From assembly GCF_014874095.1 (NCBI RefSeq), contig NZ_JADBEB010000001.1:9486001-9550000 (forward strand): a stretch of DNA of 64,000 nt. Direction: 5' to 3'. Made by a program: the position numbers and the translations under genes. Positions 49,558 through 64,000 of this stretch are shown here, piece after piece. A model generated the notes under the pieces. It had not been told where the DNA came from. It worked only from the letters and a program-made list of their open reading frames with translations, and did not search any database. The DNA is from Plantactinospora soyae (GTDB taxonomy: Bacteria > Actinomycetota > Actinomycetes > Mycobacteriales > Micromonosporaceae). Position 1 is the first letter of the stretch, and the number at the start of each line of letters is the position of its first letter.

Positions 49558-50268
49558 TTACCCGACATTCCTTGACTGGACACCTGGTGTCAGGCGGGTC
49601 AGGGCGACGCCGTAGGCGACGATCCACCCGACCCAGATCAGCCAGCCGACGAGCCCGAGCAGACCGACCGGTCCGGGGTCGCCGATGACCAGCGGGCTCA
49701 GCACGGCCGAGCCGAGTTGGAGAACGGCGGCCAGCAGGCCGATCCCACTGAGCCAGGGGCGGATCAGGCCGGCACGCCGACCGCTGACGGAGAGCCCCGT
49801 CATGGCCAGTGCCAGGAAGGTGCCGTTGAAGACGAACAGCGCGTTGTGCAGTGCCCAGAGTCCCGCGATCGCGCTGCTGTCCGGCGCGGTCGTAGAGGCG
49901 AGCGCGAGCCGGGTGGCCAGGACGCCGGTGAAGGTGATGTTCTGCAGGATCACCCCGGCGAATCCGACGAGGGACCAGGCCGTGCCCTGCTCTCGGTCGG
50001 ATCGCCAGAGCACGGATACCGCGCCGGCGCCGAAGATGGTGGCCAGTACCCAGGCGATCGGTGCGAGTGCTGACGCGAGGCCGACGGTGTCCTTCCGGGT
50101 GCTGAAGAACTGGACGACGTCGCTGGTCTCCGCACCGAGATGGGGCAGGCCGGCCGGTACCAGCAGAGCGTTGACGGAGACGATCAGGATGGCGAAGCCG
50201 AGTCCGGCGAGGCCGGCGATCCGGGAGAACGTCCAGGTACTCCACTCGACGCCGGAGTTACGAAGCAT
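49558..50268 (-). CDS. Six- to seven-helix membrane protein regulated with a TetR gene
   Basis: A 236-residue polytopic protein; helices near 20-40, 65-85, 95-115, 130-155, 165-190 and 200-225. It resembles the DUF4386-type protein at 46172 in size and topology but without its motifs. The ATG at 50268 overlaps an AT-rich palindrome and lies 7 bases after a leftward TATATT, so the message is probably leaderless. Function unknown. Confidence 0.8.
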   Translation of the reverse strand: MLRNSGVEWSTWTFSRIAGLAGLGFAILIVSVNALLVPAGLPHLGAETSDVVQFFSTRKDTVGLASALAPIAWVLATIFGAGAVSVLWRSDREQGTAWSLVGFAGVILQNITFTGVLATRLALASTTAPDSSAIAGLWALHNALFVFNGTFLALAMTGLSVSGRRAGLIRPWLSGIGLLAAVLQLGSAVLSPLVIGDPGPVGLLGLVGWLIWVGWIVAYGVALTRLTPGVQSRNVG

Positions 50269-50304
50269 ATATTCAATATAATGTGTGGAAAGTCAAAGGG
50301 GCAA
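50268..50304. promoter_or_regulatory. Divergent promoters with TATATTCAATATA operator
   Basis: TATATT-C-AATATA (50268-50280) is a perfect 13-bp palindrome in otherwise GC-rich DNA. Leftward: TTGCCC (50304-50299), 18 bases, TATATT (50280-50275), start point at the ATG itself. Rightward: a perfect TATAAT at 50277-50282 for the tetR gene. The palindrome covers both -10 boxes, the ideal place for the TetR repressor. Confidence 0.75.
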
Positions 50305-50307
50305 GCC

Positions 50308-50967
50308 ATGAGTGCCGAGACAGGCAGGCGCAGGTACGACTCGCTGCGCCGCGCCGCCCAGGCGGCAGAGACCCGGGGCGAGATCGCCAGCGCCGCCCGT
50401 CGGCTGTTCGTCGCCCAGGGCTGGGCGGCCACGACGGTACGAGACGTGGCGCGCGAGGCCGGGGTCTCGGTGCCGACCGTCTACGCGACGTACGGAAACA
50501 AGACCGGGCTGACCCGGGCCCTGGCCGAAGCGGCCGACCTCGCCGCCGATCCATCGCGGACGCTGGCCGATCTGGAGGGTGCCGAGAACGATTCCGAAGG
50601 ACAGCTCGCGGCGATGGCCGCCTACGACCGACGCCTCTTCGAGCGCGCCGGCGACGTCATCACCCTCGTACGCGAGGCGGGCCGTACCGAACCGGCGCTC
50701 GCCGCCATCTACCGCGAAGGCCGCCAGCGGGCCGACGAGACCAGGATCGGGGTGTTCTCGGCCTGGCCAGCCGGCCTGCTCCGGGAGGGACTGGACATCG
50801 CGAAGGCCGTCGACATCTACGCGGCGATCTGCAACATCGACGTCTACACCACGCTCACCGACGAACGCGGCTGGCAACCCGAGCACGTCGAACGCTGGTG
50901 GACCGAGGCGCTGATCCGTGAACTGCTGAACCGAGGTGGCCCGACTACCGTTCCGGCGTCGCAGTAG
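50308..50967 (+). CDS. TetR-family repressor
   Basis: A 219-residue regulator from ATG 50308 (AGGGG upstream). HTH: RGEIASAARRLFVAQGWAATTVRDVAREAGVSVPTVYATYGNKTGLTRAL (about 23-72). The C-terminal domain is divergent. It most likely represses itself and the divergent membrane gene. Its last 23 bp overlap the end of the convergent HerA-type ATPase gene. Confidence 0.93.
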   Translation: MSAETGRRRYDSLRRAAQAAETRGEIASAARRLFVAQGWAATTVRDVAREAGVSVPTVYATYGNKTGLTRALAEAADLAADPSRTLADLEGAENDSEGQLAAMAAYDRRLFERAGDVITLVREAGRTEPALAAIYREGRQRADETRIGVFSAWPAGLLREGLDIAKAVDIYAAICNIDVYTTLTDERGWQPEHVERWWTEALIRELLNRGGPTTVPASQ

Positions 50968-53900
50968 CCGCGCGGTGGACGACTTCCTCGGTCGTCAGCG
51001 GGCTCCGTGGATGGTGGCTCAGGCACATCGGCGCCTGCATCTTGACGAACCGGGCGCCTTCGACCCCGGCGTAGAACTGCCCGGTCCGCATCTTGCCGAC
51101 ATCGGAGATATCGGCGCCCTTCGCCCTGGCCACGTCCCGGGCCGCCTCGATCTGGACCGGCGCGGTCAGCAGGCCGAAGAGTTGGCTGGCGGCGTTGCCG
51201 GGGATCTGGTTGTGCAGCGCCTTCGGCGCCTGGGTGGCGAAGACCAGGCCCAGCCCGTACTTGCGGGCCTGCGAGGTCAGAGCCAGAGTGCTCTCCGTGC
51301 AGGCGGTGACGGCGCCGGACGGGGCCAGGGTCTGGGCCTCGTCCATCACGAAGAGTCCACCGAGTGGCCGGTCGCCGGCCGGATGACGCTTGATCCAGGT
51401 GAACAGGGCGAGTTGCAACTGGTTGACGAAGCTCTGCCGTTGGTGGCCTTCGGACAACCCGACGAAACTGATCACCGACACCCGGGCTCGCCGGCCCGGC
51501 TCCGGGGTGAGCAGTACACCGGGATCGACGGGCGTACCGGCGCCGCCGAACAGCGGATCGTTGATCAGCGCCGCCTTGAGCAGCTGCGCCATGCCGGCCG
51601 CCAGCTTCGGGGCGCCGTCGAGCTGGCTCACCCCCTCCGGCAGGTCATTCAGCACTTCGGCGAACTCGCGCAGGTCGTGGGCGCCGGTCCGGGCGTAGCT
51701 GATCAGCGCCTCGCGCAGCACGGCCCGACCGAGCCGCGCCTTGTCCGTACCGCCGTCCACCCGGGCGTGCGGGGCGAGCGTGGCAACGGCGGCGTTCACC
51801 GCTGCGGTGAACCCGTCCGGGTCGTCGAGTACGTCGGCGAACCTGGGCAGCGGCTGGAAGGTCAGCGGCCGGCCACCCTGCCGTCCTGGCGTCCAGATCA
51901 CCACGTCCGTCTCGGACAGGTACGTCGCTGCCAGGTCGGCGTCGTCCGGCCCCCACCCGTTCGGCGGTGCCGGCCACGCCTCGCCGAGCCGGGCCAGGTC
52001 GTTGTTCGGGTCGAGGACGATGGCGGAGACGCCGCGCAGGGCGCATTCCTCGACCAGCCGGCGGATCAGGACGGTCTTGCCGGAGCCGGAGCCGGCGAAA
52101 ATGACCGTGTGGCGGCGCAGCGATTCGAGATCGATCCGTACCGGATCGGGTCGCCCGGCGACCGTTCCGAGCACCACACGCTCAGGGTCGATCCCGGCGA
52201 CCGGCTCGGCACCGCGGGTCGGGGCCCGGTCGTCGGCTCGACGCGACTCGACGAGGCCCACCGGTTCGGACGTCGGCTCAGCGGGCCCGGCCGCGGATCC
52301 ATCGGACCGTGGCGTTGCCGGGACCGATGCCCGCCCGACCGCCCGGACGGGCGGAGACACCGGCGGCTCGGCCTCTGGTCGCGATGCCTGCTCCGCCATC
52401 GGCTGCGGTTCCGGTAGCGGCTGCGGTCCGGGATCCAGCGGCGCGACCGGTGGTTGCGGTGGCACCGTGGCTTCAGGCTGCCAGCCGCCCAACGCTTCCC
52501 GCAGGCAGGCGATGTCCGACGCCGGCCGCCGGTCGGCGAACCACGGCCGCAGAGTCTCCAACCCATAGTTCCGGATGAGCTGCTCAAGGGCGGTCAACCG
52601 GCTGATGTCCGCGGCGGGGAAGAGGATCGTCCGGCCGCCGGCCCGCGCGAAGGCGTCCAGCAGTTCGCGGGTACGGGCACCGGCCGACCACTGTGTGCTG
52701 CGCAGCAGGAAGAGCCTGCGCTTGGCGATTCCCTCGGTCAGCCCGGCGGTGGTGATGGCGTTGCGGATCCGGTTGAGCGCGGCGATGTGGTGCGGGGCGG
52801 AGATCGCTCGGAACGACCAGTGCTCCTCGTCCTCACTCTCCTCGTCGAGGCTGTGTCGCAACCGGGCGTGCAGGGCCGGTTTCCCGCCGGCAGGAAGTGG
52901 ATCGAGGCTGAACGCGTCGGCGGAACCACCCTGTGCGGCTATCCACGCGGTCAGGCCGGCCTGGAGCAGCACCGGAACCCTCGCGTCCTCGGACTGCTGG
53001 CGTACGGCCGGCTCGGGATCGGCTCCGGCGATCAACTCCGCGTACCGGATGTCGATCTTGCCGAACTCGTCCAGCTGACTCCTGGGTTGCGGCGTCCGGA
53101 CCGCCGGGGCTTCTTCGCCAACGGTGTTCACCTGGTCGTCGGCCGAGTGCAGCAGGTGCGTGAGCTCCCGTACCTCGCCGGCCGCCAGACAGGCCCGGAC
53201 GTGGGTGTCGATCCGGCGCAGCAGCTCACGCGGGGTGAACCCGACGACCTCGTCGAACGCGGAGGGGTGGATGGGCCACGTCGGATACGCGGGCCGGAAG
53301 CCGAGCTCGTCGAAGACCATCGCGAAGCGCTTCTCGACCAGCTCCCGCCCCACCTCGGTGGAGGGGATCTCCTTGAGCCAGACGGCTTCCCGGAACCGGT
53401 CCTGGACCGTGTCGGTGGCCTGCTCCTTAACGTTCTGCCAGGTCTGCGGCAGGCAGGAGACGACCGAGAGCGATCGCCGGGTGGTCTCGCGCAACGACAT
53501 CAGGCCACTGGCGATCTGCTCCAGCAGCAACGACGTCTGCCAGTCGGTCTCCCCCCTGACGTCGCGATTGGTCGACTTCACGGACTGGGCGACCATCAGA
53601 TCGATCTGGTCGACCGCGATCACCGTCGGGCCGACCATGGCCAGCAACCGGGACGTGTCCCGGACCACCTCCTGGGGCGCCCGCTTGTTGCGCCGTACGC
53701 CCCAGCCTGCCCGCATGCCGGGCTCCTCCTCGTCGCTGGAACAGAGGAAGTCGTAGCCGATGTCCTGCAGGGCGGAGGATTCGGCCGCGTAGAGGACCAG
53801 CGCCCGGGCGGTGTCCTGGCATTCGGTGCCGATCTGCCGGTTCGTCTTACGAATCAGGTCGACGAAGGCGTCGAGCGCGGACCGGCTGAGCTCGGTGTCC

Positions 53901-54337
53901 CCGATGACCGCCCGGCGTACCGCCCGCTGGGCGCCGACCAGGTCGGCCAGGCGGCGCAGGAACGTACGCAGTTGTGTCGTCCCGTCCGGCATCGGCCTGG
54001 CGAAGTCCGCCAGCATCGACATCGCGGTGCTGCGCCAGAACGCGCTGGCCTCCAGCAGGCTGACCAGGAAGAAGAAGCCGCCGCCCAGTTGCACCTCATG
54101 GCGTACCACGCCGAGCAGGTGCGTCTTGCCGGTGCCACGCTGACCGAGGATGGCGACGCCCACCGGGCTGGAGTCGGCGCTGCGGTCCGCCTCCGCGACA
54201 CTGTCCAGCACCGTCCTGGCGATGTCGCGATGGAGGCCCTCGACGTGGAACGGCGTCGGTTTCCACACGTCGTCCGGGGTCGGAGCCCAGTTGAACCGCA
54301 GCGCGGCCAGGGCCCGCCGCTCCTCCTCGGCCATCAT
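50945..54337 (-). CDS. Dual P-loop protein: Orc/Cdc6-like AAA+ fused to HerA/FtsK-like ATPase
   Basis: A 1130-residue cytoplasmic protein. Module 1 (about 1-400): Walker A GQRGTGKT at 65-72, Walker B TVIAVDQI at 238-245, and a winged helix-like stretch after 355, as in Orc1/Cdc6-type AAA+ proteins. A middle segment (450-615) of unknown fold is followed by a Pro-rich linker (620-715). Module 2 (720-1110): GSGSGKT at 749-755, DPNND (776-780) and LFVMDEAQ at 995-1002, then SQARKYGLGLVFATQAP, typical of HerA/FtsK translocases (DUF87). Coupled to the upstream winged-helix gene by an ATGA overlap. HerA ATPases are frequent in anti-phage systems; no nuclease is fused or adjacent. Confidence 0.88.
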   Translation of the reverse strand: MMAEEERRALAALRFNWAPTPDDVWKPTPFHVEGLHRDIARTVLDSVAEADRSADSSPVGVAILGQRGTGKTHLLGVVRHEVQLGGGFFFLVSLLEASAFWRSTAMSMLADFARPMPDGTTQLRTFLRRLADLVGAQRAVRRAVIGDTELSRSALDAFVDLIRKTNRQIGTECQDTARALVLYAAESSALQDIGYDFLCSSDEEEPGMRAGWGVRRNKRAPQEVVRDTSRLLAMVGPTVIAVDQIDLMVAQSVKSTNRDVRGETDWQTSLLLEQIASGLMSLRETTRRSLSVVSCLPQTWQNVKEQATDTVQDRFREAVWLKEIPSTEVGRELVEKRFAMVFDELGFRPAYPTWPIHPSAFDEVVGFTPRELLRRIDTHVRACLAAGEVRELTHLLHSADDQVNTVGEEAPAVRTPQPRSQLDEFGKIDIRYAELIAGADPEPAVRQQSEDARVPVLLQAGLTAWIAAQGGSADAFSLDPLPAGGKPALHARLRHSLDEESEDEEHWSFRAISAPHHIAALNRIRNAITTAGLTEGIAKRRLFLLRSTQWSAGARTRELLDAFARAGGRTILFPAADISRLTALEQLIRNYGLETLRPWFADRRPASDIACLREALGGWQPEATVPPQPPVAPLDPGPQPLPEPQPMAEQASRPEAEPPVSPPVRAVGRASVPATPRSDGSAAGPAEPTSEPVGLVESRRADDRAPTRGAEPVAGIDPERVVLGTVAGRPDPVRIDLESLRRHTVIFAGSGSGKTVLIRRLVEECALRGVSAIVLDPNNDLARLGEAWPAPPNGWGPDDADLAATYLSETDVVIWTPGRQGGRPLTFQPLPRFADVLDDPDGFTAAVNAAVATLAPHARVDGGTDKARLGRAVLREALISYARTGAHDLREFAEVLNDLPEGVSQLDGAPKLAAGMAQLLKAALINDPLFGGAGTPVDPGVLLTPEPGRRARVSVISFVGLSEGHQRQSFVNQLQLALFTWIKRHPAGDRPLGGLFVMDEAQTLAPSGAVTACTESTLALTSQARKYGLGLVFATQAPKALHNQIPGNAASQLFGLLTAPVQIEAARDVARAKGADISDVGKMRTGQFYAGVEGARFVKMQAPMCLSHHPRSPLTTEEVVHRAATATPER

Positions 54338-55011
54338 GACGAGATGGCGAGAAGGTGCTTGTCCTGGTTGCCGATGCTCACTGCGGCGGCGCGCTCCTCC
54401 GGTCTGAGTACCTTCTGGTTCGACTCGGGAACCAGGTGGACGTCCCGTTCCCGGTTGAGCCGGATCAGGGCGGCGTCAACCTCCGTACGGGACAGGTCGT
54501 CGAGCGCGGAGCGCAGGTCGGAGAGCATGACGTAGTCACCCGGCTTGGCGGCCAGCTCCTGGTACGCCCGCCGTACCAGGATGGCCGGGTCGGCCTCCTG
54601 GCCCGCCGGTGGGTCGGTGACCGTCGACGGCGCGGCGGCGAGCGCCGAGATGACGTCGCCACCGTTGATCTGCAACCGGAACAGGTCGTCGGCCCGTACG
54701 CCCGAATGGTCGATCAGCCGACGCAGGAAGTCCAGTGCGACGTAGAGCGTGCCACCGGCGCTGCCCGCACTCTTCGGTGTCTCCGCCCCCAACTCCTCGG
54801 CTGCCCGGCGCCATCCGTCGTCGGTCAGGGCCAGGGTGATCGGTTTCTCGGTGACGTCGATCAGTTCGAGGGACACCAGTTTGCGGCGATGCTCGGCCTT
54901 CAGGCCAATTCCGGCAATATTGGTGAAGTAGGTCTGCGGCAGTGGGGTTGCCTTGATCATTAGCGTGACGAGAATGCACCGCTCAACGAGCGAAAGTTCC
55001 TTTTCCGGCAT
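54334..55011 (-). CDS. Double winged-helix protein, partner of the HerA-type ATPase
   Basis: A 225-residue protein from ATG 55011, with GAGGAG 7 bases upstream. The N-terminal winged helix (about 1-75) reads LSLVERCILVTLMIKATPLP...HRRKLVSLELIDV. A C-terminal one (about 150-225) reads MLSDLRSALDDLSRTEVDAALIRLNRERDVHLVPESNQKVLRPEERAAAVSIGNQDKHLLAI, a motif I associate with accessory proteins of defence-type ATPases. Stop overlaps the ATPase start (ATGA). It could be a DNA-binding sensor or adaptor for the ATPase. Confidence 0.8.
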   Translation of the reverse strand: MPEKELSLVERCILVTLMIKATPLPQTYFTNIAGIGLKAEHRRKLVSLELIDVTEKPITLALTDDGWRRAAEELGAETPKSAGSAGGTLYVALDFLRRLIDHSGVRADDLFRLQINGGDVISALAAAPSTVTDPPAGQEADPAILVRRAYQELAAKPGDYVMLSDLRSALDDLSRTEVDAALIRLNRERDVHLVPESNQKVLRPEERAAAVSIGNQDKHLLAISS

Positions 55012-55389
55012 GCGGATGCTCCTCTGTGGCACGAGCTTTCACCACGTCCACGGTGATGATCAAAGGCTCGGGGTGGCCGGTGATCCAGGTCTGGCAACGG
55101 GGTGGCCCCGCGCACGGGCCGATTCTGCCGAGGCCGCCCGACAAGCGCAAGGTCAAGTATCCGGCTGCAGATAACCGACAGCGTCGACTGAGTGGATCTT
55201 CAGTAGTGCAGCGTGGACGGTGTGACTGAAACACCTGTTCGGGGCGGTGGCGAGTGATCATGTATCCGACCGTTGCCAAATAACGAAGGCAAGAGGCAGC
55301 ATGACTAGTCGACGAGAGGCCGGTCGGCATTGTCGACGCGCTGACCCTCTCGTTTCGCCCTTTCGCCGGACCAACCACGGAGGTGACCG
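55012..55389. other. 378-bp divergent control region of the conflict locus
   Basis: It separates the leftward winged-helix/HerA operon from the rightward Trypco1/STAND operon. It is less GC-rich than the rest. A 67-codon open frame (55026-55229, GTG start) is possible but unsupported. The part near 55250-55300 is AT-richer and a likely promoter area. No palindrome as clear as in the other regulators was found. Confidence 0.55.
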
Positions 55390-55719
55390 GTGCAGTCTGA
55401 GGTGGTCCGCTACCAGGTCGACGACAAGACGGTCGCGCTGATCGAGGTCCAACCGCTCGCCGGCTTTCAGCCCGCCGGAGTCGGCGATGTCGCCGGCTGG
55501 GTGCGGGAATCCGCCGCGCCGGCGGTCGCCGCCGCGCGAGAGTTGTTGGAGCAGGTGAAGGCCGTCTCCCCGGATGCCGTCGAGGTGAAGTTCGGAATCA
55601 AGGCGACCGGAACGGCGAATTGGGTGGTCGCCAAGGCGGCGACCGAGGGCAACTTCGAAGTCACTCTCCACTGGCATCCGAACGGATCCTCGGAGCGCGA
55701 CACCGGGTCGCGGCATTGA
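55390..55719 (+). CDS. Trypco1 (trypsin-co-occurring domain 1) protein
   Basis: A 109-residue protein; GTG 55390 has GGAGG 6 bases upstream. It matches the CU044_2847/Trypco1 family: VVRYQVDDKTVALIEVQPLAGFQP, a helix with VRESAAPAVAAARELLEQVK, and DAVEVKFGIKATGTANWVVAKAATEGNFEVTLHWHP. The family is named for its co-occurrence with trypsin-like domains in bacterial conflict systems. It ends 15 bp before the trypsin-STAND gene and is clearly in the same operon. Its biochemical role is unknown; it may be a regulator or substrate of the protease. Confidence 0.88.
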   Translation: MQSEVVRYQVDDKTVALIEVQPLAGFQPAGVGDVAGWVRESAAPAVAAARELLEQVKAVSPDAVEVKFGIKATGTANWVVAKAATEGNFEVTLHWHPNGSSERDTGSRH

Positions 55720-55734
55720 CGGACGGAGTGGCCG

Positions 55735-58700
55735 GTGACAGCCGTCCCTGACGACAGCCCGTGGGCCGTCGCCCTCCACAGGGGAGGGAGCCAGGACGCG
55801 CCGGTCGGTACCGGCATCGTCATCGACACGAACCTCGTCCTCACCTGTCACCACGTGGCCTGCACTCCCGACGGGAACCTGCACGAGGATCTGTGGGTCG
55901 CCTTCCCGCTCGCATCGAAGGTCAACTACTTCGATCGGCGCAGGGTTCGGCAATGCCTGCACGACGGTAAGCGGGCGGCCCACGTCGACCTGGTCGTACT
56001 CGAACTCGTCGAGCCGGTGCCGGCCTCCGTCGCTCCGGCGAGGCTCCGCTGCCTGCAACCCAGGCCGCTGCTCGGCCGTCCCTTCTGGGCGTACGGGTTC
56101 CCGGCCGGAATCATCGGCGGAACCCCCGTCACCGGCACCTTCACCGAGATCGGTGGCTGGGGACACGTCATGATCAATAGCGGCACCGGCGGTACGTTGA
56201 GCAAGGGGTTCAGCGGCGGCGCCGTCTGGTCGCCGGAATACCAGGCGGTGATCGGGGTCGTCGTCTCCGCCGATGCCCAGGGCAAGGGTCAGGCCGTGAC
56301 GCTGCACTACGCCGACGAACAGCTCCCGGAGATGAAGCTGGGGACACTGTCCGCATGGCGGGCCGAGGACGCCGACGACACCGCCCTGTCCGCCTGGGGT
56401 TGGGCCCTCAGCGCCGACGGTGAGGCCGGTCGCCACTGGCTGCCCCGGGCCCGTGGCGTCGCGGTCGACACCGAAGGCGGCGCCCGGTTCCGTGGCCGGA
56501 CCGCGGCCCTGCGGCGGATCGTCGACTGGATCGACGGGCCGGCGACGGTCGCCCGGCCACTGGTCGTCACCGGATCGCCCGGGGTGGGGAAGTCCGCCGC
56601 CCTCGGCCGGATCGTCACCACCGCGGACCGGCAGATCCGCGCGACCCTACCTGGCAGCGACGTCGCCGTCCGGGCCTCGATCGGCTCGGTCTCGTGCGCG
56701 GTACACGCGAAGGGCAAGACCGCCATCGAGGTGGCGACGGAGATCGCCCGCGCGGTCGCCGTCGACCTGCCCGGCACACCGGCCGACCTGATGCCGGCGG
56801 TACGCGAACGGCTGAGCCGCCGGCCCACCCGGTTCGCCCTGATCATCGACGCGCTCGACGAGACGGCGGACCCGGGGCAGGCCAGGGTGGTCGTCAACGA
56901 CATCCTGCTGCCACTGGCCCGCGAGTGCGGCCAGTACGGGGTCCGGGTGGTGGTCGGCACCCGTCGCTCGGACGACCGGGGCGATCTGATCGCCTGCCTC
57001 GGTGACGACGCCGAGCTGATCGACCTGGACACGCCGGAGTACTTCGCCGAACCCGATCTCGCCAACTACGCACAGGCGACCCTGCAACTGCTCGGTGCCG
57101 AGCGGCCCGCCAACCCGTACGCCGACGCCAGCACGGCCGCACCACTCGCCCGCCGGATAGCCGCCCTGGCGAAGGGGAACTTCCTCGTCGCCGGCCTCGT
57201 CGCGCGGGCACACGCGTTGCGGGACACCGGACCCGTCGACCCGGCATCCGTGTCGTTCACCGCCACCGTCGCACACGCGCTGGACGCCTACCTCTCCGGC
57301 CTGCCGACGGCGGGCTCGACCCCTGCCAGGCTGGCGCTCACCGCCCTGGCGTACGCCGAGACACCGGGACTGCCGCTGTCCCTGTGGCAGACCGCGGTAG
57401 CGGCCCTCGGCGGTACGGTCACCGAGGCGGAACTTGGCGGCTTCGCCCGTACCTCGGCGGCCAACTTCCTGGTCGAGACGGGTGGCGGCGCGCAGCCCGC
57501 GTACCGGTTGTTCCACCAGGCTCTCAACGACGCGTTGCTCGCGGACCGCGACGTCCGGGCGTCCCGCCGCGACGACCAGCGCCGGCTCGTCTCCGCCTGG
57601 GCCGGCCCGGCCGGTGCCAACGGTTGGGCGGACGCCCCCGACTACCTGCTGCGGTCGCTGCCACAGCACGCCGTCCGGGCCGGGCTCGTCGAACGGCTGC
57701 TCGCCGACGAGGACTACCTGCTGCACGCGCACCTGGACCGGTTGCTCACGGTCGTCGACGCGGAGCAGGCGCCGATGGCGCCGCTGCCGGATGCCCGAGC
57801 GAGGCTGCTCCAGCGCACCCCGCTGGCGGTGGCGGCGGAACCGGCCGAGCGAGCCGCACTCTTCTCGGTCGTCGATCGCCTCGACCACCTCGGCAGCGGA
57901 ATCGTGGCCGGCGCGGCACCGTACCGTGCCCGATGGGCGCATACTCCGCCCCGGCAGGAACGCAGCGTGCTGGACGGGCACTCACAGGCCGTCTACGACG
58001 TCGCCGCTGTCGAGATCGACAATCGACGGTTGCTCGCCTCCGTCGGCGACGACGGCACCGTCCGACTCTGGGATCCGCTGACCAATCAGGCCGAGCAGGT
58101 CTTCACCTGCCACGACGACACGATCCGCGGAGTGTGCGCCATCCGGACCGGTGGCGGCGAGGTGCTGATCGCCACCGCCAGCCACGACGGCACGATCGGC
58201 CTGTGGGATCCGCGAACCGGCCACCGCCGGCACGAACTACGTGGGCACGGCGACTGGGTACGGAACGTCTGCGCCGTTCCCCTTCCCGGTGGTGACCTGC
58301 TCGCGTCGGCCGGAGACGACCGGACGGTGCGGGTGTGGGATCCGGTCACCGGAGCTGCCCGGTACGAGTTGACCGGGCACGCCGGCTGGGTGACGGCGGT
58401 GACGTACGTGCCGGCCGGTGACCGCCATCTCCTGGCGTCCACCGGATACGACGGCACGATCCGGATCTGGGAGCCGACCGCCGGAAGTGTGCCGACGCTG
58501 GTTCTCGCCGGCCACACCGGATGGGTCACCACCCTGTACGCGGTCCACGCGCCCGGCGGCACCCTGCTCGCCTCGGCGGGCTACGACGGCACGGTGCGGC
58601 TGTGGAATCCACTGACCGGTCAGCCTGTTCAGGTCCTCGACACCGGCGGGCCGGTGACCGATCTCTGCACGGTCGACACGGACGAGGGTTGCCTGCTGGT

Positions 58701-59793
58701 GTCCACCGGTGAGGACGGCCTCATCCGGTTGTGGGAGGTGCCGACCTGGAAACAGCGACCGAGCCTGCGCGGACATGCGAGCTGGATCCGGGCGGTGTGC
58801 GAGCTACGGACGGCGAAGGACCGGATGCTGGCTACCGCCGGGGACGACGGCACGGTCCGGTTGTGGGATCCGGCCGGCGGCCAGCCGGACACGGTCGCCG
58901 ACCAGGACAGGCTCGGATCGGTGCGCGCGATCTGCCGGATCCCGGGCGAGCGGCCGGTACTTGCCGCCTCGGGCGACGTCGACGGCCAGGTGCGACTCTG
59001 GGACGCCCACACCGGCGAGCGGCTGCTGGAGTTCGCCACGCCGGGGGGCGCCGTCAACGCGATGTGCGCGGTCGCGGACGACGAGGAACCCCTGGTCCTC
59101 ACGGCCCAGGATGACAACGTGGTCGGATCGTGGGACGCCCGGGACGGTTCGCTGGTACGGGAGATGAGCGATCACCACGATCGGGTCACGGCGGTCTGCC
59201 CGATCGTCGTGAACGGTGAGACGTTGATCGCCTCTGCCGGCGACGACCAGACCATCCGGCTGTGGCACCCGCACACCGGCGGCGTACGCGCGGTTCTGCT
59301 CGGGCACGTCACCCGTACCTGGGTCACCGCGCTGGCCACGGTCAGTTGGCCGGGTTTCGAGACGCTCGCCTCGGCGGACGAGAGTGGCACCGTGATGCTG
59401 TGGGGTGGTGGTGATACCCCGCTCTGGGCCCAGCAGGGCCACCAGGATGCCGTGACCGCGCTCTGCGGTGTCACGGTCGCCGGCCGCCCGGCGCTGCTGT
59501 CGGCCAGCGCCGACCACACGATCCGGATGTGGGACGCCGAGCAGGGCCAGCCGGTCCGATGGTTCACCGGGCACTCTGCCGCGGTGACCGGGCTGAGCCT
59601 GGTACGGGTCGGCGGTCGGGACCTGTTCGCGTCGACGAGCCGGGACCGTACGGTGCGGATCTGGGATCCGATGAGCGGTCGACTGGTGCTCACGATCCCC
59701 GTCTACCATCCGGCGCTGGCGTGCTGCGTAGTCGGCGACACTCTGGTGGTGGGTCTGGACCAGGGCTTGCTGGCGCTCGCGATCACCGATTGA
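55735..59793 (+). CDS. Trypsin-STAND NTPase-WD40 protein (NLR-like)
   Basis: A 1352-residue protein; GTG 55735 with GGAG nearby. Domain 1 (about 1-200): S1 protease with His40 in VLTCHHVA, Asp85 in VDLVVLEL and Ser160 in GFSGGAVW, so the triad is complete; no signal peptide, so it acts inside the cell. Domain 2 (about 245-720): STAND NTPase with Walker A GSPGVGKS at 280-287 and Walker B FALIIDALDE at 367-376, then helical regions. Domain 3 (about 738-1352): thirteen clear WD40 repeats and a degenerate last one, enough for two seven-blade propellers. By analogy with NLR-type and Avs proteins, ligand binding by the propellers would release the protease. Confidence 0.93.
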   Translation: MTAVPDDSPWAVALHRGGSQDAPVGTGIVIDTNLVLTCHHVACTPDGNLHEDLWVAFPLASKVNYFDRRRVRQCLHDGKRAAHVDLVVLELVEPVPASVAPARLRCLQPRPLLGRPFWAYGFPAGIIGGTPVTGTFTEIGGWGHVMINSGTGGTLSKGFSGGAVWSPEYQAVIGVVVSADAQGKGQAVTLHYADEQLPEMKLGTLSAWRAEDADDTALSAWGWALSADGEAGRHWLPRARGVAVDTEGGARFRGRTAALRRIVDWIDGPATVARPLVVTGSPGVGKSAALGRIVTTADRQIRATLPGSDVAVRASIGSVSCAVHAKGKTAIEVATEIARAVAVDLPGTPADLMPAVRERLSRRPTRFALIIDALDETADPGQARVVVNDILLPLARECGQYGVRVVVGTRRSDDRGDLIACLGDDAELIDLDTPEYFAEPDLANYAQATLQLLGAERPANPYADASTAAPLARRIAALAKGNFLVAGLVARAHALRDTGPVDPASVSFTATVAHALDAYLSGLPTAGSTPARLALTALAYAETPGLPLSLWQTAVAALGGTVTEAELGGFARTSAANFLVETGGGAQPAYRLFHQALNDALLADRDVRASRRDDQRRLVSAWAGPAGANGWADAPDYLLRSLPQHAVRAGLVERLLADEDYLLHAHLDRLLTVVDAEQAPMAPLPDARARLLQRTPLAVAAEPAERAALFSVVDRLDHLGSGIVAGAAPYRARWAHTPPRQERSVLDGHSQAVYDVAAVEIDNRRLLASVGDDGTVRLWDPLTNQAEQVFTCHDDTIRGVCAIRTGGGEVLIATASHDGTIGLWDPRTGHRRHELRGHGDWVRNVCAVPLPGGDLLASAGDDRTVRVWDPVTGAARYELTGHAGWVTAVTYVPAGDRHLLASTGYDGTIRIWEPTAGSVPTLVLAGHTGWVTTLYAVHAPGGTLLASAGYDGTVRLWNPLTGQPVQVLDTGGPVTDLCTVDTDEGCLLVSTGEDGLIRLWEVPTWKQRPSLRGHASWIRAVCELRTAKDRMLATAGDDGTVRLWDPAGGQPDTVADQDRLGSVRAICRIPGERPVLAASGDVDGQVRLWDAHTGERLLEFATPGGAVNAMCAVADDEEPLVLTAQDDNVVGSWDARDGSLVREMSDHHDRVTAVCPIVVNGETLIASAGDDQTIRLWHPHTGGVRAVLLGHVTRTWVTALATVSWPGFETLASADESGTVMLWGGGDTPLWAQQGHQDAVTALCGVTVAGRPALLSASADHTIRMWDAEQGQPVRWFTGHSAAVTGLSLVRVGGRDLFASTSRDRTVRIWDPMSGRLVLTIPVYHPALACCVVGDTLVVGLDQGLLALAITD

Positions 59794-59861: not shown

Positions 59862-62800
59862 TTACTTGATCAACTTCCACGGGCCGTTGGCGCCGCCCGG
59901 CGTCTGGTTCCGGGTGTACCACCTGGCCTCGTACACGTGGCCCTGGTACGTCGCTCGGTCGCCGGCGTCGTACACAGTGGTGGGTGTCCAGGCGGCCGGG
60001 CTACCGTCCGGCGGCGGCGGGGCGATCTCCGCCCACGGGCCGTTCGGATCGCCCGGTGCCTGGTTGCGGGTGTACCAGCGGGCGCGGAACCTCTTGCCGT
60101 CGTCCATCACGATGTCGCCGGCGTTGAAGATCCGGGACGCCGTCCAGATCGGAACTCCGTCCTCGGTCATGGCCAGTTCCTGCCACGGGCCGTTCGGATC
60201 ACCCGGCTTCTGGTTCTTCGCGTACCAGGAGGCCTGGTAGATCCGGCCCTGATAGCCGACCCTGTCGCCGTCCCGGTACGCCGTCGAGGCGCTCCAGGCC
60301 GGCGGCAGCTTCACCGTCACGGTGCCGGTGCCCTGCGCCGGGTCCAGGTACTCGCTGCCGGAGAACGACGCGGTGAGCGCGTGGTCGCCGGGTGCGAGTC
60401 CCACCGGCAGGGTGAACGTCGCGGTGTCGCCAGAGAGCGTGGTCGAGCCGCGCATCGTGCCGCCCTCGCGCAGTTCCACGGTGCCCGACACCGGCGCGGT
60501 GCCGGCCCCGACCTTGACCGTCACCTTCGCCGCCGTACCCCAGTCGGTCGCGGCCGAGGTGACGGTCACCGTCGGCGCCCCCTTCGCGGTACGGAACACG
60601 GCCGGCGCGGCCACGGCGACGCCGTCGTCGGCGCTGCGTGCCGAGACGATCCAGGCGTACGACGTACCCGGCCGCAGGCCGGACCAGTTCACCGTGGCGG
60701 TGCCGTCGGCGGTCACCTCGTCCGTCCCGATCACGCCGGACGGCACGTACGCGGCCAGCGAGTCGGTGGAGAACGAGGTCTTCCGGGTGGTGATGTCGAC
60801 CGGCAGGGTCAGGTTGTCCTCCGCGCCGTTGTACCGGGGCGTGGTCTGGCTGCCGTCGGCCCGGATGTCGTACTCGGTCGCCCCGAAGTTCTCCAGCAGC
60901 GGCGAGTACGTGTCGATGTGCATCTCGGCGCGGTCCACGTCGAACTGCATCAGGCGCAGGAAGCTCGCCCCGAACTGCAACCGGTCGGTGGACTTGTGAT
61001 CCGGTTTGCCGTCCCGGTCGAGGTCGATGTTCCCGGCCGCGTCGACCAGATCGGGCCAGAGTTCGTCGGCGCGCACCGTGTAGAACTGGTAGTCCGCCAG
61101 CAGTTCGACCACGTCGTGGGTCACGGTCACGCCGACCTTCGTCTTCAGGTTGGTGCCGACGCCGTGCTCGTGCCCGGCGAGGACCAGGAAGACGTTCGGG
61201 TTGTTCTCGACGACCAGCTTGTACAGGGGCGAGCCGTCGGGTGCGGAGAAGGCCGCGCCCCGACCATCGGGGTTGGTCGACGGCTTCAGGTAGTCGTGGG
61301 AGAGCAGGATCCCGTTGCGGTCCTTGTACCGCTTGAAGACCGAGTCGGCCCAGCGGGCCTCGTCCGGCGTGACCCCGTACGACAGGCCGACCGCGACGAA
61401 CTCCAGTCCGCCGGCGGAGAAGAGCACGTAGTTGTTCTGGTTGTCCTTGCCGGGCGTGACACTGCCGTCGGCGTTGGTCACCTCGTCCCAGGCGTGGTAC
61501 TCGGCGCCCGCCGGCCATGCTCCGGCCACCCGGTAGTACCGGTCGGCGCCGAAGGTCCGGCTGAACCGGGAGTCCGGGCCGGTCTCGGCACCGAGCTGGT
61601 TGTCGTGGTTGCCGGCGATGACCTGGTTCACCACGCCCTTGTCGTCGAGGATCCGCTGGTAGCTCGAGGCGCGTTCGAACTCCCGCTCGACCTGCTCGTT
61701 CAGGCCGGGCCGCTGCAACGAGCCGTCCGGGTTCTTCGCGAGCGGGTCGTAGTAGTCGTTCTCGATGACGTCACCGGTGTGCGCGGTGTACGCGATCTTG
61801 CGACCTCCCGCGTTGTCGGCGATCCACTGGGTCTGCTCGCGGTACGCCGCGGTGAAGATCGCCTGCTCCTCCACCGTCTGGATGTCCGAGGGCTCCGCCC
61901 GGCCGTCGAAGTCGTCGTACGTGCCGCCGGCCGCGCCCTCGCTCAGGTACTGGGTGTCAGTGAAGTGCGCGAGCGCGAAGTCGTACGAGGCCGGGTCCTC
62001 GAACCGGTCCTTGTCGTTCTGCGCCGACGAGTCGCGCGGGGACAGGTCGTCGGCGAACGGGTCCTCGCCGGTGACCAGTACGTGAACGGTGCCGCCGCCG
62101 CGATGTTCCGGGGTCAGCGGTGCGGTGAGCACGGTGCTCTGTCCGGCCTGGCCACGGGAACTGGTCAACATGACCCACTTCTTGGCCGCCGGATCCCAGA
62201 CCCGCAGTGCCACCACCCGCTTCGGGTCGGCGCTGCCCTCCCAACGCAGGATCGGCGTCTCGGTGGTGGCGCCGAGCTTCACGTCGTACCGCTGGAAGAC
62301 CACGTCCCGGCTGGACGGGGTGTCGATGGTCCGGCCGTCGAGCGGGCGCAGCGAGCCGACGTCGACGCCCTTGTCGTGCGCGACGTCGAGCGTGGTCGGC
62401 ACGGCGGACGCCTCGCCCTGGTAGCCCGCGGTCGGGATCACCACGTCCGCCTTGGTGAAGGTGGCTGTCAGCGGTAACCCGTCCGCGCTGGGGATCGTGG
62501 CCGAGAGCGTGGCCGAGGGCGAGTGCCCGCCGGTGACGGCCGCGCCCAGCCCGGTCGGGACGTCCGGGATGCTCGCACTGGTGAACCGCACCTCGCGGGT
62601 GGCCGTGTTGCCGAGCGTGTCGGTCGCCGTCACCGCGATGGTGTGGCTGCCGGCGGGCAGGCCGTGGCCGATCTGGTCGCCCTGGGCGACCGCCTTGCCG
62701 TCCAGGGTGATGGCGGGTGTCCCGGCCACCCCGGTGGCGTCGGAGACCTTGATGTCCAGCGCGACGGTCGCGGTCAGCCGCTGGCCCGGCGCCGGAACGC

Positions 62801-64000
62801 TGCTCTCGACCACCGGCGCGCTGTTGTCGACGGTGAAGTGCCGGGTCGAGGTCTTGTCGCCGACGGTCGCCTTGATCGTGTGCGGGCCGTCCGCGATCGC
62901 CGTCGTGTCGACGTCGGCCCGCTTGCCCAGCGCCCGGAGCGCGGAGCCGTCCTCGGCGGTGACGTCGAACAGGACGGTCTTGTCCAGGGCGGCGTTGTGG
63001 CTGCTGCCGCAGGTACCGTCGCCGACGTGGACGGTGACCGGCGAACCCACCGGGTAGCTGGTCGAGCCGATGGTGACGGTGCTACCCGCGATCATCCTGG
63101 TCAGCTGAGTCGCCTTGCCGGCGACCGGGGCGAGCTGGAAGTCGCGCAGGGTGAAGTCGTCGTAGTTGTCGCAGCCACCCGGCTTGTCGCCGCCGTGGTC
63201 GCTGCCGGCGACGAACTCCAGGACGTTGACGCCGGGGACGAGCCACTCGTTCGGGAAGGCGACGTCGGCGGTCTCCTTCTCCCAGACGCCGAGGTCCAGC
63301 GGAATGCCGTTGACCAGTACCTTGTTGTCGAAGCCGTTGTCGGCGCCGTTGCCACCGACGAAGACCTTCAGATGTGCGTCACCGCCGCTGCCCAGGGTGT
63401 CGATGGTACGGGTGGTCGGCGCACCGTCGATGGTGAAGTGGAACTCGGCCTCGGAGTTTGCGCCGCACGTCCCGTCGCCGAGCGCGAGCGACGCGTCGGT
63501 GGTCTCCGCCTTCGTCACCGTCCCGCCGGCGGTGGTGACCAGGTACGTGGTGCCGGGAGTGACGGTCCCCGGTGTGCTCAGCGCCAGGCTCACCGCGCTG
63601 CGGGTGAGCCGGAAGTCGTCGTGGTTCGGGCAGGTCGCGCCGTTGGCGGTGCCGTTGTAGTCGCCGGTCTTGACCTCGACGACGTTGTCCCCGGGCCGGA
63701 GGAACCGGGTCGGGAAATTGAGGCTGACGTTCTCCGCCGCGCTCACGGCGTAGTCGCCGCCGAACTCGACCCGGTTCCCGTTAACCAGTACGTAGTTGTG
63801 GTACTTCGCCTCGACCGAGTTGCCCGCCTCGACGGTCAGGCCGAGGGTCGCGGTTCCGGCGGCGAGCGTCTCCGCGTTCTGGGCGGGCCGGTCGTCGATG
63901 GCCAGCGACTCGACGCTCTCCTCGCTGCCGTTCGGCAGCGCGGCGATCACCGGTCGGGTACCCCGGACGAGCGCGCCGTCGGCCGGAGTCAGCTTCGCCG
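59862..64000 (-). CDS. Secreted metallophosphoesterase with carbohydrate-binding modules, 5' end cut
   Basis: At least 1378 residues; the frame is open to the window end, so signal peptide and start are missing. N-terminal half: two jelly-roll-like CBM units (each with DGTCG and a DDFTL/DDFRL pattern), and Ig-like modules (VDNSAPVVESSVPAPGQRL). The phosphoesterase domain has FTDTQYL, HTGDVIENDYYD, GNHDN and LAGHEHG, the metal ligands of calcineurin-type enzymes. Fibronectin III- and Big3-like domains follow, then three C-terminal WY-rich CBM5/12 chitin-binding modules ending in ARWYTRNQTPG-type motifs. It probably works on polysaccharide-bound phosphate or phosphorylated glycans. Confidence 0.92.
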   Translation of the reverse strand, partial: AKLTPADGALVRGTRPVIAALPNGSEESVESLAIDDRPAQNAETLAAGTATLGLTVEAGNSVEAKYHNYVLVNGNRVEFGGDYAVSAAENVSLNFPTRFLRPGDNVVEVKTGDYNGTANGATCPNHDDFRLTRSAVSLALSTPGTVTPGTTYLVTTAGGTVTKAETTDASLALGDGTCGANSEAEFHFTIDGAPTTRTIDTLGSGGDAHLKVFVGGNGADNGFDNKVLVNGIPLDLGVWEKETADVAFPNEWLVPGVNVLEFVAGSDHGGDKPGGCDNYDDFTLRDFQLAPVAGKATQLTRMIAGSTVTIGSTSYPVGSPVTVHVGDGTCGSSHNAALDKTVLFDVTAEDGSALRALGKRADVDTTAIADGPHTIKATVGDKTSTRHFTVDNSAPVVESSVPAPGQRLTATVALDIKVSDATGVAGTPAITLDGKAVAQGDQIGHGLPAGSHTIAVTATDTLGNTATREVRFTSASIPDVPTGLGAAVTGGHSPSATLSATIPSADGLPLTATFTKADVVIPTAGYQGEASAVPTTLDVAHDKGVDVGSLRPLDGRTIDTPSSRDVVFQRYDVKLGATTETPILRWEGSADPKRVVALRVWDPAAKKWVMLTSSRGQAGQSTVLTAPLTPEHRGGGTVHVLVTGEDPFADDLSPRDSSAQNDKDRFEDPASYDFALAHFTDTQYLSEGAAGGTYDDFDGRAEPSDIQTVEEQAIFTAAYREQTQWIADNAGGRKIAYTAHTGDVIENDYYDPLAKNPDGSLQRPGLNEQVEREFERASSYQRILDDKGVVNQVIAGNHDNQLGAETGPDSRFSRTFGADRYYRVAGAWPAGAEYHAWDEVTNADGSVTPGKDNQNNYVLFSAGGLEFVAVGLSYGVTPDEARWADSVFKRYKDRNGILLSHDYLKPSTNPDGRGAAFSAPDGSPLYKLVVENNPNVFLVLAGHEHGVGTNLKTKVGVTVTHDVVELLADYQFYTVRADELWPDLVDAAGNIDLDRDGKPDHKSTDRLQFGASFLRLMQFDVDRAEMHIDTYSPLLENFGATEYDIRADGSQTTPRYNGAEDNLTLPVDITTRKTSFSTDSLAAYVPSGVIGTDEVTADGTATVNWSGLRPGTSYAWIVSARSADDGVAVAAPAVFRTAKGAPTVTVTSAATDWGTAAKVTVKVGAGTAPVSGTVELREGGTMRGSTTLSGDTATFTLPVGLAPGDHALTASFSGSEYLDPAQGTGTVTVKLPPAWSASTAYRDGDRVGYQGRIYQASWYAKNQKPGDPNGPWQELAMTEDGVPIWTASRIFNAGDIVMDDGKRFRARWYTRNQAPGDPNGPWAEIAPPPPDGSPAAWTPTTVYDAGDRATYQGHVYEARWYTRNQTPGGANGPWKLIK

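What the first reader, a model, noticed from the sequence alone, without database searches (positions are those of the whole stretch)
50945..59793. Divergent conflict locus: winged-helix/dual-ATPase operon facing a Trypco1/trypsin-STAND-WD40 operon
Four genes in two head-to-head operons combine a HerA/FtsK-like translocase fused to an AAA+ module with an NLR-like protease. Trypsin-STAND with Trypco1 is a known conflict-system pairing; I do not know a described system that joins it to this AAA+-HerA/wHTH pair. A shared 378-bp control region suggests joint deployment, for example DNA sensing by one arm and protease-triggered cell death by the other. The combination is inferred, each part is seen in the sequence.
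Basis: partly seen in the sequence, partly recalled or inferred. Interest (0 to 1): 0.72.

Follow-up and report, generated by a model that had tools for sequence, protein, structure and literature searches.

The report
HerA defence cassette with protease effector
A four-gene cassette in soil bacteria joins a predicted DNA-pumping defence motor to a protease that resembles animal and plant immune receptors, which seems to have taken the place of the DNA-cutting enzyme that often partners this motor.

Summary
The four genes are as described and form one conserved head-to-head cassette. The core (tandem winged-helix protein plus AAA+–HerA ATPase) occurs in 43 loci I held. By my profiles its partner is a same-strand DUF559 nuclease in 18, the head-to-head trypsin–STAND–WD40 protein in 12, a PADLOC candidate pair (PDC-M02) in 1, and none of these in 12; two of those 12 face a PDC-M55/Abi_2-type operon. 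Nuclease and STAND partners were never seen together.

In 200 family genomes 30 of 45 STAND homologues face this core. With four named loci, the 34 linked STANDs form one clade (SH-aLRT 97), 34 of 34 head-to-head. Flanks differ among the 12 cassettes compared, one pair excepted.

Among 46 scorable loci Trypco1 is missing in 9 of 9 with a dead protease and 1 of 37 with an intact one, but only about four independent coincidences.

HerA with AAA+, winged helices and a nuclease is a published predicted class ('HerA/FtsK capture systems'). I found no account of a protease–NLR arm in the nuclease's place. Defence and mechanism are inferred.

The parts
50945..54337 (-). AAA+-HerA ATPase (P0001, 1130 aa), constant core gene
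   Evidence: both Walker motif sets invariant in the 12 sequences aligned
53138..54337 (-). N-terminal AAA-type P-loop domain (aa 1-400)
   Evidence: AAA_16 hit in 11 of 11 members, best 1.1e-7; ORC-CDC6-like in 6 of 11, best 0.022
52478..53080 (-). middle domain (aa 420-620), no recognised family
   Evidence: the P0001 model is too poor to use (pLDDT 51.5)
50978..52183 (-). HerA/FtsK-type ATPase domain (aa 719-1120)
   Evidence: PF01935 1.7e-11, PADLOC mad8 8e-20; PDB HerA matches
54334..55032 (-). tandem winged-helix protein (P0002, 232 aa), constant core gene, overlaps the HerA gene by 4 nt
   Evidence: predicted fold; found beside HerA in 11 of 11 loci that were fetched by P0001 similarity (L002-L012)
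55033..55389 (.). shared divergent control region, 357 bp
   Evidence: conserved blocks across 7 loci, e.g. GCCGATTCTGCCGA at 55118-55131; no sigma-70-type promoter match
55390..55719 (+). Trypco1 protein (P0003, 109 aa)
   Evidence: PF19493 1e-17
55735..59793 (+). trypsin-STAND-WD40 protein (P0004, 1352 aa)
55735..56379 (+). trypsin-like protease domain, about aa 1-215, His40/Asp85/Ser160 intact
56485..57534 (+). STAND NTPase domain, about aa 251-600, GSPGVGKS and LIIDALDE
57970..59790 (+). WD40 repeats, about aa 746-1352, probably two propellers
   Evidence: PF00400 1e-74; blade count by eye

Best explanation
The locus is one four-gene anti-invader system of the HerA/FtsK 'capture' type in which a protease-NLR arm stands in place of the nuclease. 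Shown from sequence: a core (tandem winged-helix protein plus AAA+-HerA ATPase) that elsewhere is often partnered by a DUF559 nuclease; one clade in which the partner is instead a trypsin-STAND-WD40 protein, usually with Trypco1, always head-to-head. Inferred: the winged-helix protein and the AAA+ domain place the HerA ring on foreign DNA (phage, plasmid or conjugating DNA); engagement or stalling of the motor is read by the STAND-WD40 protein, which oligomerises on ATP; this brings trypsin domains together and they cut a target. Trypco1 is tied to that protease step as substrate, inhibitor or cofactor, since it goes missing when the protease dies. The outcome is probably growth arrest or death of the infected cell. 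That STAND replaced a nuclease, rather than the reverse, is inferred from the tree, in which STAND-linked HerA rows nest among nuclease-linked ones (midpoint root).
For: Partner classes: of 43 HerA-bearing loci 18 DUF559, 12 STAND, 1 PDC-M02, 12 none of these; STAND and DUF559 never together. DUF559 partners lie on the same strand, ending within 17 bp of the winged-helix match in 17 of 18, and keep a D/E/D set (catalytic by recalled family knowledge) in 18 of 18. STAND-linked HerAs form one clade, SH-aLRT 99, nested with DUF559-linked rows; the one member without a STAND (L069) ends at a contig edge, and the same genome has, on another contig, a STAND with Trypco1 facing a partial winged-helix gene. 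34 linked STANDs one clade, SH-aLRT 97, 34 of 34 head-to-head, none with DUF559 in the stretch fetched. HerA, winged-helix and STAND identities co-vary (Mantel r 0.97-0.98, 12 loci), while flanks are not shared except L003/L007 and one gene between L002 and L004. Other partners of the same core match PADLOC defence candidates: PDC-M02A/B in L008, PDC-M55A/B/C in L055, with the homologous operon in L057 and no shared flanks; L065 lies beside Wadjet JetC/JetD. Trypco1 missing in 9 of 9 dead-protease loci and 1 of 37 intact.
Against: The link arose once, so 34 loci are not 34 independent tests, and the covariation may partly reflect host phylogeny. A smaller STAND tree (18 rows, with bootstrap) did not recover the linked rows as one clade: 2 changes, one origin in only 16% of bootstrap trees; the larger tree has no bootstrap. 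Divergent genes need not act together. 7 of 34 linked loci have no working protease. One Trypco1-less locus (L105, not HerA-linked) has an intact triad, and L097 keeps Trypco1 with a broken trypsin frame; independent contrasts are 4 for, 0 against, 1 neutral (sign test p 0.125). Of the 43 core loci, 12 have none of the three main partners. The AAA+ and middle domains could not be assigned to Orc/Cdc6 or an inactive nuclease. The 10 neighbouring window ORFs scanned with Pfam are not defence genes. No phage or plasmid challenge exists.
Confidence: 0.58

Rival explanations
1. Two independent defence modules share one mobile neighbourhood: a solo HerA-winged-helix system and a Trypco1-protease-STAND system that happen to move together.
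For: Each half exists without the other: DUF559-linked or partnerless cores, and STAND genes with no HerA core in the stretch fetched in 15 of 45 places, 10 of them with Trypco1, one (L109) on a contig too short to judge; also L013 and L014. The link arose once.
Against: Not seen broken in 34 loci, while flanks mostly differ among the 12 cassettes compared; the DUF559 partner is absent where STAND is present; a common control region with conserved blocks in 7 loci.
Confidence: 0.17
2. The winged-helix protein is a transcription factor for the divergent protease operon, and the HerA ATPase gates it; the pair regulates rather than senses invaders.
For: Head-to-head layout in 34 of 34, conserved blocks in the intergenic region, MarR-like fold matches.
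Against: The same winged-helix protein accompanies HerA in 18 loci where the recognised partner lies on its own strand. Autoregulation could coexist with the main model.
Confidence: 0.12
3. The core is a DNA-segregation or conjugation-related motor and the locus serves element maintenance, not defence.
For: HerA/FtsK and TraD-type similarity; the cassette is found in differing contexts.
Against: No integrase, relaxase or partition gene among the 10 proteins next to cassettes scanned or the 10 window neighbours scanned; partners are nucleases, PADLOC candidates and an NLR-like protease.
Confidence: 0.08

Closest known systems
HerA/FtsK capture systems coupled to Orc/CDC6 AAA+ (Rakesh, Aravind, Krishnan 2024, PMC10853773; abstract, passages, sections 22 and 26 read)
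   Same: HerA ATPase with an AAA+ ATPase and winged-helix protein as a mobile predicted anti-invader neighbourhood; 18 relatives of this core carry a DUF559 (PD-(D/E)XK-type, recalled) nuclease partner.
   Different: The window locus has no recognised nuclease; it has a divergent Trypco1 plus trypsin-STAND-WD40 operon. 'Trypsin' and 'DUF559' occur 0 times in that paper's main text; its supplements were not read. The Orc/CDC6 and inactive-nuclease features could not be confirmed here.
Trypco1-trypsin pairing in conflict systems (PMC7159879, 2020; passages read)
   Same: Trypco1 gene directly next to an N-terminal trypsin domain.
   Different: In the passages seen the pair belongs to MoxR-vWA (VMAP) systems; here it sits on a STAND-WD40 protein facing a HerA core.
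Recurrent nuclease-protease pairs (Tuck et al. 2025, PMC12799240; passages read)
   Same: A trypsin-like protease as a module acquired by unrelated defence systems, fused to the N-terminus of a core enzyme, with a partner gene upstream.
   Different: There the partner is an MBL-fold pro-nuclease; here it is Trypco1, and HerA occurs 0 times in that paper's main text.
HerA-DUF4297 and HerA-Sir2 systems (search listing only)
   Same: HerA ATPase with an effector partner.
   Different: No AAA+ fusion, no winged-helix partner, different effectors (comparison recalled).
MADS (PADLOC mad8)
   Same: P0001 HerA domain matches the mad8 model, 8e-20.
   Different: P0002 and P0003 matched no PADLOC model and P0004 only mad8 among MADS models, at 0.0047.
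CARD-NLR / LypABC (PMC13236601; passages read)
   Same: Trypsin-like protease with an NLR-like STAND ATPase.
   Different: Separate proteins with TPR-like repeats there; one trypsin-STAND-WD40 polypeptide plus HerA core here.

Membership tests
HerA/FtsK capture system (Orc/CDC6-coupled) | HerA/FtsK ATPase | tested here: met
   PF01935 1.7e-11, PDB HerA matches
HerA/FtsK capture system (Orc/CDC6-coupled) | Orc/CDC6-family AAA+ ATPase | tested here: inconclusive
   AAA_16 in 11 of 11 (best 1.1e-7), ORC-CDC6-like in 6 of 11 with best 0.022
HerA/FtsK capture system (Orc/CDC6-coupled) | winged-helix protein | tested here: met
   predicted fold and profile
HerA/FtsK capture system (Orc/CDC6-coupled) | inactive REase between AAA+ and winged helix | tested here: inconclusive
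   middle domain matches no family; model unusable
HerA/FtsK capture system (Orc/CDC6-coupled) | active REase | tested here: not met
   none recognised in the four proteins nor by the DUF559 profile in the 34 STAND-linked stretches; a DUF559 gene is present in 18 relatives
Trypco1-trypsin pair | Trypco1 gene next to a trypsin domain | tested here: met
   triad intact
MBL nuclease-trypsin pair | MBL-fold nuclease gene upstream of the protease | tested here: not met
   the upstream gene matches Trypco1 only
MADS | eight-gene mad1-8 set (recalled) | tested here: not met
   PADLOC scan of the four proteins: only mad8
Anti-phage defence system | protects against phage | not testable with these tools
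   needs a bench assay

The most novel reading that the evidence does not exclude
The STAND-WD40 protein, not its protease, is the conserved reason for the link: an NLR-like receptor that reads or guards a HerA DNA pump, with the trypsin/Trypco1 pair as a removable output. In two branches of the linked clade (L009; and the six loci L058, L108, L110-L113, all of one genus by the tool's code) the protease is dead or gone and Trypco1 lost, yet STAND motifs, head-to-head layout and HerA core persist.
Probability: 0.3. Interest if true: 0.8.

Novelty: new variant of a known kind. Interest (0 to 1): 0.62.

Why it matters
It shows, in one family of bacteria, a conserved DNA-motor core paired with a nuclease in some branches and with a protease-NLR arm in another, so the same trigger can be tested with two different outputs. 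It also gives Trypco1, a domain whose role I found stated nowhere in the passages read, a direct test: its loss tracks loss of protease catalysis. If the STAND arm reads the HerA motor, it would be an NLR-like receptor coupled to DNA translocation.

Tried and rejected
P0001 structure: model of pLDDT 51.5, not used for any fold claim. P0002 against the PDB: MarR-like winged helices, none with E at or under 0.001. P0001 relatives in phages: no match; in viral contigs: no pattern match. Phylum-wide profile search for P0002: 2 of 198 genomes including the window's own, but at most 14 candidates per genome were scored, so this is a lower bound. Promoter and terminator scans of the control region: none found, few expected by chance. 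WD40 hypervariability as a sensor signature: not supported by a crude test, mean WD40 identity among 7 loci (0.784) is like the other parts of P0004 (0.763-0.822, short linker 0.925). MADS and MBL nuclease-protease membership rejected (see table). 'Two unrelated neighbours' rejected as the leading view.

Rows dropped before counts: L113 and L115 (no trypsin domain) and L097 (trypsin reading frame broken, Trypco1 kept) from the 46-row table; L064 (HerA cut by a contig end) and the second HerA piece of L057 from the tree. Of the 36 regions fetched by P0002 similarity, 5 (L059, L066-L068, L070; partial winged-helix matches) hold no HerA match and were not counted among the 43. The dead/intact protease calls were made by eye from the residues printed. 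L079, L080 and L083 lie on contigs of the same length as those of L006, L003 and L002; each was counted once. The DUF559 profile was built from three sequences, so distant nucleases can be missed.

Full report
WHAT IS THERE. The window is positions 9,486,001-9,550,000 of a 9.7-Mb single-contig genome. Its genus is most likely Plantactinospora: a genome in the same genus (G255) has a contig of the same length, 315,811 bp, as the P. mayteni contig of locus L006. Four genes lie in two head-to-head operons. The minus-strand operon encodes P0002, a 232-aa protein with two predicted winged helices, overlapping by 4 nt P0001, a 1130-aa protein with an AAA-type P-loop domain and a C-terminal HerA/FtsK ATPase domain. 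The plus-strand operon encodes Trypco1 (P0003, PF19493 1e-17) and P0004, a trypsin-STAND-WD40 protein (trypsin and STAND by motif). Both sets of Walker motifs of P0001 are invariant in the 12 sequences aligned.

IS IT A UNIT? A first search by P0001 gave 8 loci. Seven carry the STAND protein head-to-head; L009 lacks Trypco1, and L008 lacks the STAND arm. In 12 STAND cassettes (window, L002-L007, L009, L035, L036, L045, L058) the span is 8.2-8.9 kb. Flanks of up to 5 kb share both sides only between L003 and L007, and one gene of about 1 kb between L002 and L004; the other matches are of 240 bp or less (blastn 1e-10). HerA, winged-helix and STAND identities co-vary (r 0.97-0.98), which may partly be host phylogeny.

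SAMPLING BOTH WAYS. From the winged-helix side, 26 of 41 family genomes (about one per genus) have a P0002 match. I fetched 36 regions; 31 hold a HerA relative. With the window and L002-L012 that makes 43 loci: 12 with STAND, 18 with a DUF559 nuclease, 1 (L008) with PADLOC's PDC-M02A/B pair, 12 with none of these. Of these 12, L049 and L069 end at a contig edge on the partner side and L064 on the HerA side. L055 and L057 face a four-gene operon, homologous between them (52-74% identity, no shared flanks); in L055 three of its proteins match PADLOC's PDC-M55A/B/C and the fourth Pfam's Abi_2. L061 has an upstream 772-aa protein without Pfam or PADLOC match, and L065 lies about 2 kb from Wadjet JetC/JetD. 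For L048, L052, L053, L062 and L063 I recognised no partner in the upstream stretch printed (by eye, no family search). STAND and DUF559 were never seen together. DUF559 genes lie upstream on the same strand, 17 of 18 ending within 17 bp of the winged-helix match, with a D/E/D set kept in 18 of 18. From the STAND side, 41 of 200 family genomes (the window's own included) have 45 homologues at E<=1e-100; 30 of 45 face a HerA-winged-helix core and 15 do not within the stretch held, one of these (L109) on a contig too short to tell. At most 5 candidates per genome were scored, so counts are lower bounds.

HISTORY. In the HerA tree (42 rows) STAND-linked rows form one clade (SH-aLRT 99) together with L069, nested among DUF559-linked rows; all labels need 8 changes against a shuffled mean of 20.5. 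Four rows (L011, L012, L052, L062) have long branches and uncertain places. The L069 genome (G005) has, on another contig that also ends there, a STAND with Trypco1 facing a partial winged-helix gene; the pieces on the two contigs overlap in part, so they may be one gene or two copies. A first STAND tree (18 rows) needed 2 changes for the linked label, with one origin in 16% of bootstrap trees. In the larger STAND tree (49 rows: the 45 places plus L004, L005, L007, L009) the 34 linked rows form one clade (SH-aLRT 97, no bootstrap) with a single change of state, and 34 of 34 are head-to-head. So the pairing most likely arose once and was not seen broken. That is strong evidence for a maintained unit but not 34 independent gains.

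TRYPCO1 AND THE PROTEASE. Trypco1 is absent from 9 of 9 loci whose triad is broken (L009, L058, L099, L102, L107, L108, L110, L111, L112) and from 1 of 37 loci with an intact triad (L105, not HerA-linked); Fisher p 9e-9 without correction for descent. On the tree Trypco1 presence needs at least 5 changes and the triad at least 4; independent pairs run 4 together, 0 against, 1 neutral, sign test p 0.125. L113 and L115 lack both trypsin domain and Trypco1; L097 keeps Trypco1 with a broken trypsin reading frame; these three were set aside. STAND Walker A and B patterns are present in 49 of 49, so the STAND part outlives the protease.

MECHANISM. Shown: architecture, linkage, exclusivity of partners, intact motifs, correlated loss. 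Inferred from recalled family knowledge: HerA-type ATPases translocate DNA; winged helices bind DNA; STAND proteins are ATP-driven oligomeric switches; WD40 propellers bind partners. I take the core to engage foreign DNA and the STAND arm to read that event and fire the protease. That the target is the cell's own proteins, and that the result is arrest or death, is a guess by analogy.

PRIOR ART. PMC10853773 (abstract, passages, sections 22 and 26 read) predicts HerA/FtsK capture systems joining HerA, an Orc/CDC6 AAA+, winged helices and nucleases; PMC12839542 (passages) says the same combination recurs. 'Trypsin' and 'DUF559' are absent from the main text of PMC10853773. Trypco1 was named in PMC7159879 (passages). 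[quoted passage not shown] Ten paper searches were made; the two that asked for HerA with trypsin listed no account of a HerA core with a trypsin-STAND arm. Supplements were not read and most subscription journals are not held.

VERDICT. A real, conserved four-gene cassette found in many contexts; a new variant of a predicted class in which a protease-NLR arm stands where relatives have a nuclease. Defence is likely but untested.

Noticed in passing
L055:10940-15494 and L057:3770-8312: A PDC-M55A/B/C-like operon plus an Abi_2 protein faces the HerA-winged-helix core head-to-head in two genera with no shared flanks: a second divergent partner.
   Followed up: partly
L061:10523-12838 (-): A 772-aa protein of no Pfam or PADLOC family lies directly upstream of the winged-helix gene.
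   Followed up: partly
L009:13159-13875 (+): A 238-aa gene with apparent transmembrane stretches (by eye) starts about 27 bp after the HerA gene in a cassette whose protease is dead; no Pfam hit.
   Followed up: partly
L100:5602-6000 and L103:3525-4664: Trypco1 lies next to its trypsin-STAND gene but on the opposite strand in these two loci without a HerA core.
   Followed up: no
L105 (G363): The one locus with an intact triad but no Trypco1; the same genome has a second STAND with Trypco1 (L106).
   Followed up: no
G000:C1:5116810-5117103 and 8350157-8350444: Two further Trypco1 genes in the window's own genome.
   Followed up: no
window 50140-50967 (+): A TetR-family ORF overlaps the 3' end of the HerA gene by 23 nt on the other strand.
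   Followed up: no
window 59862-63950 (-): Large protein with a calcineurin-like phosphoesterase domain and three CBM5/12 modules next to the cassette; no similar ORF at the 8 loci compared.
   Followed up: no
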